From: Sipunculus nudus
Lineage: Eukaryota; Annelida; Sipuncula; Golfingiida; Sipunculidae
DNA: 64,000 nt
Direction: 5' to 3'
NCBI GenBank assembly: GCA_026874595.1
Contig: CM049314.1
Span: forward strand, 54,605,812-54,669,811
A model generated the notes under the pieces. The model was not told where the DNA came from. It saw nothing but the letters and a program-made list of their open reading frames with translations, and did not search any database. Within the stretch, counting starts at the first letter, position 1. Every line of letters starts with the position of its first letter. Of this stretch, positions 11,952-13,005 are shown in pieces. A program made the position numbers and the translations under genes.

Positions 11952-11958
<7 letters not shown>

Positions 11959-11970
11959 AAGGTATGTGAT

Positions 11971-12027
11971 GAATCTGGGTCACGACCGTCGGTTTCGCCT
12001 CGTCGGCTCGTCAGGTGACTGGAATTC
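11971..12027 (-). ncRNA. Hammerhead ribozyme, left copy (sense to element)
   Basis: Same sequence as the right copy but on the minus strand, starting about 20 bases beyond the retroelement stop codon. Core CTGACGA, stem II GCC/GGC with a 5-base loop, GAAA, a 2-bp stem III (CC/GG) with loop GAC, cleavage triplet GTC, and stem I GTCAC/GTGAC closed by GAAT/ATTC around an internal loop. Predicted cleavage follows the C pairing with 11984. All invariant core positions are present. The minimal stem III is typical of Penelope-associated hammerheads. Confidence 0.88.
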
Positions 12028-12048
12028 AACTAGTTGCGATATTGGTTT

Positions 12049-12852
12049 TTATAATTTCTTTTTAGCACGGTTGGGTGCCCTTGGACCATGGCGGCAGGTG
12101 GAAACAATTTCCGAACGTTTGTTCAAAAGGTTCTTTTGTTTTGAGCTTATAATTGCTAGTTTCTCTGCCAAGCACAGATTGCACTGACATGAAGAGGCCA
12201 TAAATGTGTTTGACTGCTGGATTATAGACCAGGTGATAGTGAAGCTTTGTTGTTTGTCTTTCAGGGTCCAAATGTGTTTTGCAAGCTCGGTTTCGTTTAA
12301 ATGGGTCCTTCGGTGAATGATTTCTTGTGGTTGTAATACCTTTGTTTGAAGGGGCCTCCGGTCATGCCGATGTATGAGTTAACTGTACCGTTACTGTGTA
12401 CGTCGGCTTGGTAAACAAACTTGATTAGGCACTTTCCGTTGAGAGGGCAGTCAGATTTTGTCACGGCAGTTGCATAGCCTTTGTTGTGTGGGTTCTCCTT
12501 GTCGCCTTTCAGACAGTAATCTTGTATGGTGGCTTTGTATTATTGAACTAACGTTCTTCATGCAGCTATAGCTAATTTTCAGATTGTTTTTATTGAATAA
12601 TTTGTGTAATGCGTGATTTTTTTGGAAAGTGTTTGGCTACACGTTTGAAGAAGATTTTGCCGATATTTGTTTTCACGATTGCACTGTACGGGGGGTTAAA
12701 CCAAATAATATTTCTGAATCGCTTTTTGCGGCGTTTTCCGGCAGCTTCCTGTGGGGCGATATAACTAAGTTTTTGCTTGTATCCGCTATTGCTGAGTGCT
12801 TGTTCGTATTCTCTGGATACTTTTCTGAAGGTGTTTTCATCTTGAGAAAGTT
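12049..12852 (-). pseudogene. Penelope-like RT C-terminus + GIY-YIG endonuclease (broken)
   Basis: From the right, the minus strand reads LSQDENTFRKVSREYEQAL, LSNSGYK, KKRFRNIIWFNPPYSAIVKT and KHFPKK, the typical end of a Penelope-like reverse transcriptase. After a frameshift near 12590 comes ISYSCMKNV, then a CNCR zinc-knuckle-like segment and, in a second frame, DCPLNGKC, FVYQAD, SYIGMTGGPFKQRYYNHKKS. FVY and YIG match the two halves of the GIY-YIG endonuclease core. A third frame continues with ELAKHIWTLKD, CQCNLCLAEK, LLNKRSEIVSTCRH and a stop at 12049-12051. At least three frame changes mean no functional protein. The complete family protein is several times longer; the RT palm is absent. 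An ATG at 12871 lies within the inverted repeat and is not a genuine start. Confidence 0.93.
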
Positions 12853-12858
12853 CTAGTT

Positions 12859-12915
12859 GAATTCCAGTCACCTGACGAGCCGACGAGGCGAAACCGACGG
12901 TCGTGACCCAGATTC
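12859..12915 (+). ncRNA. Hammerhead ribozyme, right copy (antisense to element)
   Basis: Core CTGACGA at 12872-12878, stem II GCC/GGC, GAAA at 12890-12893, stem III CC/GG, triplet GTC with predicted cleavage after 12902. Stem I pairs 12867-12871 with 12903-12907 and is extended by GAAT/ATTC. Type I topology. It would be transcribed only from the strand opposite to the retroelement ORF. Confidence 0.88.
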
Positions 12916-13005
12916 ATCACATACCTTAACATATCATGCTCTGTTGCAAAACATAGAGCGCTGTGTGACCGCGGAGGAAAGACTGCATACCCGCAGATCA
13001 TTTCT

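What the first reader, a model, noticed from the sequence alone, without database searches (positions are those of the whole stretch)
11952..12934. Penelope-like fragment capped by perfect 82-bp inverted repeats, each a hammerhead ribozyme
Seen: two identical 82-bp ends in opposite orientation, each folding into a complete type I hammerhead (CTGACGA, GAAA, GTC, paired stems), around a GIY-YIG-coding remnant with frameshifts. Known: Penelope-like elements carry hammerheads in terminal repeats, usually described as direct repeats or tandem copies. Unusual: an inverted pair whose identity exceeds what the decayed coding part would predict, with the right copy antisense to the ORF. Both ribozymes could act only if both strands are transcribed.
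Basis: partly seen in the sequence, partly recalled or inferred. Interest (0 to 1): 0.85.

Follow-up and report, generated by a model that had tools for sequence, protein, structure and literature searches.

The report
Twin-ended, broken Penelope retrotransposon insertion
This is a broken copy of a known kind of animal jumping gene (a Penelope-like element carrying a self-cutting RNA motif), and its mirror-image ends look like the scar of the copying enzyme starting once on each DNA strand; the element is ordinary, but the scar helps show how these elements insert.

Summary
In detail: a perfect 82-bp inverted repeat (11952-12033/12853-12934), each arm holding a type I hammerhead-like motif, around a frameshifted minus-strand remnant with a GIY-YIG-like motif. 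The reading is only partly right. The right arm is not the end: the element runs on to about 13015, where (AT)n resumes. The 82 bp is no repeat unit: among 15 such insertions of the family, window included, the overlap ranges from none to 117 bp. Inverted Penelope ends are in print (PMC3846280).

Copies in this animal's genome explain it. This family, and a second one also in the window (60272-60533), have two alternative 3' ends, short (S) and long (Lg), 81 and 61 nt apart, usually beside (AT)n. Of 36 loci with an inverted piece, 29 have one S and one Lg end (8 of them tested after the prediction was noted), none has two alike, and 7 end elsewhere or could not be typed. I infer that each target strand primed one cDNA, at different sites of the RNA; here the Lg-primed cDNA ran 82 nt past S, through the hammerhead.

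Verdict: new member of a known kind, with a useful mechanistic regularity.

The parts
11918..11955 (.). (AT)n tract at the S end of the insert (target, or a tail made at priming)
   Evidence: read
11952..12852 (-). body: 5'-truncated Penelope-like copy, corresponds to unit positions U1480-2360 of L026; its 3' end (S end, ..CATAT) is at 11952
11952..12033 (-). left arm of the 82-bp inverted repeat; 3' end of the body
11979..12019 (-). hammerhead motif, sense to the ORF; predicted cut between 11984 and 11983
12297..12539 (-). remnant with CPLNGKC and SYIGMTGGPFKQRYYNHKKSF, GIY-YIG-like endonuclease part (label recalled)
   Evidence: aligned with families A and B; no Pfam match
12590..12852 (-). 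upstream coding remnant (..RFRNIIWFNPPYSAIVKTNIGK..); the open frame continues from the arm
12853..12934 (+). right arm: second cDNA copy of U2279-2360, joined to the body with 2 bp of microhomology (AG)
12867..12907 (+). hammerhead motif, antisense to the ORF; predicted cut between 12902 and 12903
12935..13015 (+). rest of the second cDNA: U1-81, up to the long (Lg) end ..CTTATATAT
13009..13051 (.). (AT)n tract at the Lg end
60272..60421 (-). family B body, S end at 60272; second head-to-head Penelope-like insertion of the window
60305..60353 (-). family B hammerhead motif; predicted cut between 60310 and 60309
60422..60533 (+). family B second cDNA in opposite orientation, Lg end at 60533

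Best explanation
A 5'-truncated Penelope-like retrotransposon copy made by reverse transcription primed from both strands of an AT-rich target. The template is RNA from a tandem array and spans the unit junction (hammerhead - S site - 81 nt - Lg site). One target strand primed at S and copied 881 unit positions upstream (the body). The other primed at Lg and copied 163 nt, passing S by 82 nt and so copying the hammerhead a second time. The two cDNA ends were joined with 2 bp of microhomology, giving a head-to-head insert with an 82-bp overlap. Shown by sequence: two end types in two families, unlike ends in every head-to-head insertion that could be typed, variable overlap, (AT)n beside the ends. 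Inferred: both cDNAs on one RNA (or one two-site complex), priming by pairing with the AU repeat, end joining. The hammerhead is a normal part of these families; the insertion record gives no sign that its cut makes the template ends.
For: The 82-mer has 42 matches in the own genome, 40 of 292 candidates having been scored. Family A: of 35 loci examined (34 fetched, plus the window) 15 are S/Lg head-to-head; none is S/S or Lg/Lg. Family B: 6 loci typed (L051, L060, L065, L069, window, L075), all S/Lg. Prediction noted, then loci from a pattern search fetched: 8 typed, all S/Lg (L076, L077+L078, L079, L083, L084; L053+L085, L086, L087). For family A, independent choice of ends gives 7e-7 for 15 of 15; 20 of 20 gives about 1e-6 even at equal use. 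(AT) run of at least 10 within 60 bp: 3' flank 43 of 46, 5' flank of head-to-head inserts 15 of 21, of plain inserts 5 of 25 (Fisher p = 0.0008), background 2.2% (family B contributed the 12 of its 33 copies whose two boundaries were visible). Two plain inserts followed by (CA)n (L027, L031) end at ..TTAACA instead of ..CATAT, as pairing at priming predicts. In print: the Anolis PLE protein nicks and extends both target strands in vitro, starts RT internally, has two RT start sites bounding the 'tail', prefers AT-rich DNA, and hammerhead mutants do not affect insertion (PMC11167929, main text read).
Against: Seven further loci have an inverted piece that is not S/Lg: L036 (internal U2112 / near Lg, U74), L080 (S / U63, short of Lg), L058 with L088 (Lg / internal B-121), L049 (Lg / B-5 without AT flank), L047 (outer end not resolved), and two copies with a short inverted piece of their own body directly at the 5' junction, L018 (16 bp) and L024 (28 bp), as fold-back or internal priming would leave. 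L015 has an Lg-type piece 3.5 kb from its body, counted as plain. [quoted passage not shown] Overlaps up to 117 bp need strand displacement, or a second template molecule, if one RNA serves both cDNAs. No empty site was available, so (AT)n might be a tail made at priming. End types were assigned by reading script output. Pfam and PDB sequence searches do not recognise RT or GIY-YIG domains.
Confidence: 0.8

Rival explanations
1. Self-priming: a cDNA made on an antisense transcript folds back on itself and gives head-to-head inverted ends (offered for Adineta vaga Penelope in PMC3846280).
For: Published for similar structures with palindromes at the junction (Discussion read). Two of 31 plain copies checked, L018 and L024, have a short inverted piece of their own body directly at the 5' junction, so fold-back may happen in this family as a minor route.
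Against: In the window and in the 28 other S/Lg insertions the second arm is not a mirror of the sequence next to the junction: it comes from the element's 3' region, begins at another end site (Lg) than the body (S), and in some does not overlap the body. Fold-back does not predict unlike ends.
Confidence: 0.06
2. Two separate insertions in opposite orientation into the same (AT)n tract.
For: (AT)n is a frequent neighbour, so repeated hits are expected; L043 looks like two direct insertions with a short (AT) stretch between them.
Against: In the 15 family A S/Lg inserts there is no (AT)n between the two halves; they join directly or within a few unaligned bases (16 in L011, 11 in L019, fewer in the others). 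The other S/Lg inserts were not all examined for this. Independent events would also give S/S and Lg/Lg.
Confidence: 0.05
3. The 82-bp arms are true terminal inverted repeats of a defined mobile unit with a hammerhead at each end.
For: Perfect 82-bp identity in the window.
Against: Overlap length differs between insertions, the right arm is followed by 81 bp more of element, and in 9 of 15 family-A S/Lg copies the second arm does not span a whole hammerhead.
Confidence: 0.02
4. Unrelated local inverted duplication, gene conversion between arms, or an assembly error.
For: Arms are identical while the upstream body has frameshifts.
Against: The same kind of structure with different junctions occurs at many places on different contigs; the arms equal the family's commonest sequence, so conversion is not needed; 12 pairs compared differ by 0-6 bases.
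Confidence: 0.03

Closest known systems
Penelope/Poseidon-type Penelope-like elements, e.g. PAc of Anolis carolinensis (PMC11167929)
   Same: Tandem units with pLTRs, hammerhead in the pLTR region, C-terminal GIY-YIG-like motif, two alternative 3' ends bounding a 'tail', AT-rich targets.
   Different: Here the tail is 81 nt (family A) or 61 nt (family B) instead of 30-40; in unit U the hammerhead lies after the last ORF stop instead of at the ORF start; typed head-to-head copies always pair the two ends.
Penelope families of Adineta vaga (PMC3846280)
   Same: 5'-truncated copies flanked by inverted pLTRs; a 31-bp tail optionally present on one of the inverted pLTRs.
   Different: There pLTRs of 181-218 bp, TSDs of 8-10 bp in several copies and palindromes at junctions were reported; here the overlap is variable, the tail is on exactly one side in all 29 typed cases, and TSDs cannot be read in (AT)n.
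L1 twin priming (recalled; not read here)
   Same: Two target strands prime on one RNA and give an inverted piece.
   Different: In L1 the inverted piece is upstream of the 3' piece and normally without duplication; here a defined pair of start sites is used and an overlap of up to 117 bp is common.
Animal retrozymes with type I hammerheads (PMC7229834, passages)
   Same: Type I hammerhead in a repeated genomic element.
   Different: Retrozymes are short tandem repeats, expressed as small circular RNAs and called non-autonomous; here the unit is 2360 bp with coding remnants.

Membership tests
Penelope-like element (PLE) | Reverse transcriptase of the PLE/telomerase type | tested here: inconclusive
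   Unit U has FMVFDIVDFYPSIS and GLFRDDGLAALK (motif reading recalled). Two NCBIfam RT models hit residues 74-162 and 92-162 weakly (E 0.0009 and 0.0026, far below cut-off); the same call gave a clearly chance hit of E 0.0023 (elongation factor 1-alpha) on another piece. Pfam and PDB: no RT match.
Penelope-like element (PLE) | GIY-YIG endonuclease with Cys-rich motif in the same ORF | tested here: inconclusive
   SYIG(M/N)TG..FK.RY.NHKKSF shared by two families at 50% identity; the CPLNGKC stretch is in family A only in the frames aligned; no Pfam or PDB match.
Penelope-like element (PLE) | Tandem or partial-tandem units giving pseudo-LTRs | tested here: met
   L026: 332 bp of a copy followed by a 2360-bp unit in direct orientation; L042 alike with a shorter first piece.
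Penelope-like element (PLE) | Optional tail at the 3' end, inverted pLTR arrangements, 5' truncation | tested here: met
   S and Lg ends in both families; head-to-head copies; variable 5' ends.
Penelope-like element (PLE) | Target site duplication | tested here: inconclusive
   Most flanks are (AT)n on one or both sides, so a duplication cannot be told from the tract.
Type I hammerhead ribozyme | Conserved core CUGANGA / GAA / UH with stems I, II, III | tested here: met
   stem III is 3 bp with a loop of 3 (A) or 4 (B) nt. Stem II differs in length between families A and B; the core is the same apart from the free base N7 and the base before the cut. Several copies have stem changes.
Type I hammerhead ribozyme | Match to an Rfam hammerhead model | tested here: not met
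   No match at gathering score or at E up to 10. PLE hammerheads are described as minimal variants that usually lack helix III (PMC6155905, passages).
Type I hammerhead ribozyme | Self-cleavage of the RNA | not testable with these tools
   Needs transcription and a cleavage assay.

The most novel reading that the evidence does not exclude
In these Penelope-like families the two target strands obligatorily use the two different RT start sites of one RNA, so a paired two-site complex makes both ends of an insertion. The tail then is the spacing between two reverse transcriptases, inverted pLTRs are the direct product of two-strand priming, and the overlap (here 82 bp) measures how far the downstream enzyme displaced the upstream cDNA.
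Probability: 0.5. Interest if true: 0.65.

Novelty: new member of a known kind. Interest (0 to 1): 0.45.

Why it matters
How Penelope-like elements complete an insertion is open; PMC11167929 says further steps are yet to be validated. Inverted pLTRs were put down to self-priming in PMC3846280. A genome record in which all 29 typed head-to-head insertions pair the two kinds of 3' end points to two-strand priming at two sites instead, and gives a rule that an in vitro assay or a full genome scan can test at once. It also argues, with PMC11167929, that hammerhead cleavage does not make the template ends.

Tried and rejected
Rfam scans for the hammerhead: negative; hits listed are to AT-rich or unrelated models below their gathering scores and were discarded. 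Pfam, NCBIfam and PDB searches for the RT and endonuclease: nothing firm. A combined hammerhead covariance model was not built, because family A and B stem II do not align. Arm-to-arm comparison within 12 pairs as a test of common origin: too few variable sites to decide; within-pair differences were 0-6 and not always lower than between loci. Changes of the window's body against the majority of other copies gave no strong case for arm homogenisation. Ends at the hammerhead cut: none of 15 second-arm inner ends and none of 32 body 5' ends within 1 nt (values entered by hand, L027 by eye; L026, L041 and L042 left out). Against this, the template jump inside L011's second arm lands about 2-7 nt from the cut, and I cannot exclude a cut RNA there. 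Cervera and De la Pena 2014 is not held. Paper searches on Penelope with twin priming, second strand, microsatellite or AT-rich targets, pLTR and tail listed no paper whose title is on two-strand priming of PLEs; PMC11167929 and PMC3846280, both opened, came closest. Most listed papers were not opened. The organism was not identified; a 1.43-Gb assembly in 153 contigs and a RING/B-box gene suggest an animal, no more.

Full report
Observation. The two arms 11952-12033 and 12853-12934 are 82 nt, perfectly complementary and 819 nt apart. A strict type I hammerhead descriptor finds both arms on opposite strands, and a third hammerhead at 60348-60310 on the minus strand; Markov-simulated sequence gave none in 60 x 64 kb. 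Rfam does not report any of them at gathering score, nor the arms at E up to 10. A hammerhead pattern that fits arms and third site has 120 matches in the own genome and none for the reversed pattern. The coding remnant between the arms is on the minus strand in several frames, with a motif (SYIGMTGGPFKQRYYNHKKSF) that I recognise from memory as GIY-YIG-like; Pfam does not match it, but a second family in the same genome has the same part at 50% identity.

Anatomy from sister copies. The own genome (G000, 1.43 Gb) holds many copies: 42 matches to the 82-mer with 40 of 292 candidates scored. I fetched 34 loci. L026 contains a partial copy followed by a full 2360-bp unit in direct orientation; I used that unit, U, as a ruler. 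The hammerhead core starts at U2298 and its cut lies after U2328. Measured on U, the window insert is: (AT)n; then U2279-2360 plus U1-81 in one orientation (13015 to 12853); then U1480-2360 in the other (12852 to 11952); then (AT)n. So the right arm is followed by 81 bp more of element before the (AT)n, and 82 bp is only the overlap of two pieces.

Two end types. Family A copies end either at U2360 (..CATAT, called S) or at U81 (..CTTATATAT, called Lg), usually followed by (AT)n. Of the 19 family A loci without an S/Lg or L036-type inverted structure, 14 end at S and 5 at Lg (my count). Family B, found through the third hammerhead, has the same two-end design: S at ..GAACTTATA and Lg 61 nt further at ..CCCTTTCTGTA. 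The window's family B copy (60272-60533) is itself head-to-head, with S at one end and Lg at the other.

The rule and its exceptions. Of 35 family A loci (34 plus the window) 15 are S/Lg. In family B (32 loci, the window copy, and L075) 6 were typed at that stage, all S/Lg. After noting the prediction I fetched new stretches: S/Lg in L076, L077+L078, L079, L083, L084 (family A) and L053+L085, L086, L087 (family B), 8 of 8 typed. L053 and L085 are contiguous; for L077+L078 about 1.35 kb between them was not fetched, so that they belong to one insertion is assumed. That makes 29 S/Lg and none with like ends. Seven more loci have an inverted piece and do not fit or could not be typed: L036 (internal U2112 with U74), L080 (S with U63), L058+L088 (Lg with internal B-121), L049 (Lg with B-5, flank not AT), L047 (outer end unresolved), and L018 and L024, whose 5' junction carries a 16- or 28-bp inverted piece of their own body, found among 31 plain copies checked. 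In the same check L023 and L057 gave short inverted matches (16 and 22 bp) that do not touch the junction. L015 has an Lg-type piece 3.5 kb from its body and was counted as plain. In a variant of family A (L076, L078, L079, L081) the last bases of the S end differ and BLAST stops at U2348; I read these as S ends. Independent choice of ends would give 15 of 15 with a chance of about 7e-7, and 20 of 20 with about 1e-6 at the most favourable usage. The search query lies inside the part that both end types share, so like-ended pairs would have been seen.

Flanks. An (AT) run of at least 10 lies within 60 bp of the 3' end in 43 of 46 insertions, of the 5' end in 15 of 21 head-to-head and in 5 of 25 plain insertions (p = 0.0008); the background is 2.2%. 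This count used 34 of 35 family A loci and the 12 family B copies (of 33) with both boundaries visible. Two plain copies followed by (CA)n, L027 and L031, end at ..TTAACA instead, as expected if the target end pairs with the RNA at the start. Whether (AT)n was there before or is partly made at priming cannot be told without empty alleles; both readings predict the flank pattern.

Mechanism. PMC11167929 (main text) shows for the Anolis element that the protein nicks and extends both strands of AT-rich DNA, starts internally, has two start sites that bound the genomic tail, and that hammerhead mutants do not affect insertion. The structures here are what two-strand extension should leave behind, with the added rule that the two strands use different sites, which that paper did not see in vitro. 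The simplest account is two reverse transcriptases on one RNA, one at Lg and one at S, with the downstream one displacing the upstream cDNA; overlaps in the 15 family A cases are 8-117 bp in 12, none in L013 and L019, and a separate 37-bp piece in L011 after a jump. One RNA for both is inference. Self-priming, proposed in PMC3846280 (Discussion), does not predict unlike ends, though L018 and L024 suggest that fold-back can occur.

Hammerheads. Both window arms hold a whole hammerhead because the Lg-primed cDNA ran 82 nt past S; in 9 of 15 family A S/Lg copies the second arm does not span one, and no second-arm inner end (of 15) or body 5' end (of 32) lies within 1 nt of the cut. The jump in L011 lands about 2-7 nt from the cut, the only hint of a cut template that I saw. 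Templates were uncut at the hammerheads they copied through. In a read-through transcript the two 82-nt arms could pair with each other and mask both hammerheads (inference).

Arm identity. Arms equal the family's commonest sequence; 6 other places have it at 100%. The 12 pairs compared differ by 0-6 bases over 8-117 bp. The window's body is 0 of 156 different from L012 and 1.4% from L009, 4-5% from L026 and L042, 9.1% from L041. A young insertion explains this; the frameshifts upstream are partly its own, partly unresolved because few copies reach that far.

Known or new. Inverted pLTRs, tails, AT-rich targets and hammerheads in pLTRs are all in print (PMC3846280, PMC11167929; PMC6155905 and PMC7229834 in passages). 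What I did not find stated in the papers opened is that exactly one of the two ends carries the tail in head-to-head copies; PMC3846280 says it is optionally present on one of the inverted pLTRs, which comes close, and the source it cites for this was not opened.

Noticed in passing
window 60272-60533: A second, different Penelope-like insertion with its own hammerhead, also head-to-head and beside (AT)n; not reported in the finding.
   Followed up: yes
G000 C2:89799033, 89815989, 89838034, 89863501; C3:40034267: A third hammerhead family (core near CTGATGAGCCGATGAGGCGAAACCGGCGGTAGTGAC), four copies clustered within 65 kb on C2.
   Followed up: no
L017:797-850: A very short piece of a diverged Penelope-like copy with a partial hammerhead, lying inside an (AT)n tract.
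   Followed up: partly
L018 and L024, 5' junctions: Short inverted pieces (16 and 28 bp) of the element's own body directly at the 5' junction, as fold-back priming would leave.
   Followed up: partly
L075 and G000 C9:1515100-1526900: A family B head-to-head insertion of which part is repeated 2388 bp further on in direct orientation; a similar pair of hits lies about 10 kb away (local duplication).
   Followed up: partly
window 15089-17322: 26-bp tandem repeat, 86 copies, in the region of strong GC skew at 14-18 kb.
   Followed up: no
window 1-675 and 26210-28839: 27-bp tandem array (25 copies, open as a repetitive reading frame TILSYFRGL) and a 49-bp array (54 copies).
   Followed up: no
window 57828-58481 (-): RING finger plus B-box protein (TRIM-like) reading frame.
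   Followed up: no
L027 and L031: Family A copies next to (CA)n whose 3' boundary is shifted to TTAACA, as if the target sequence chose the start point on the RNA.
   Followed up: partly
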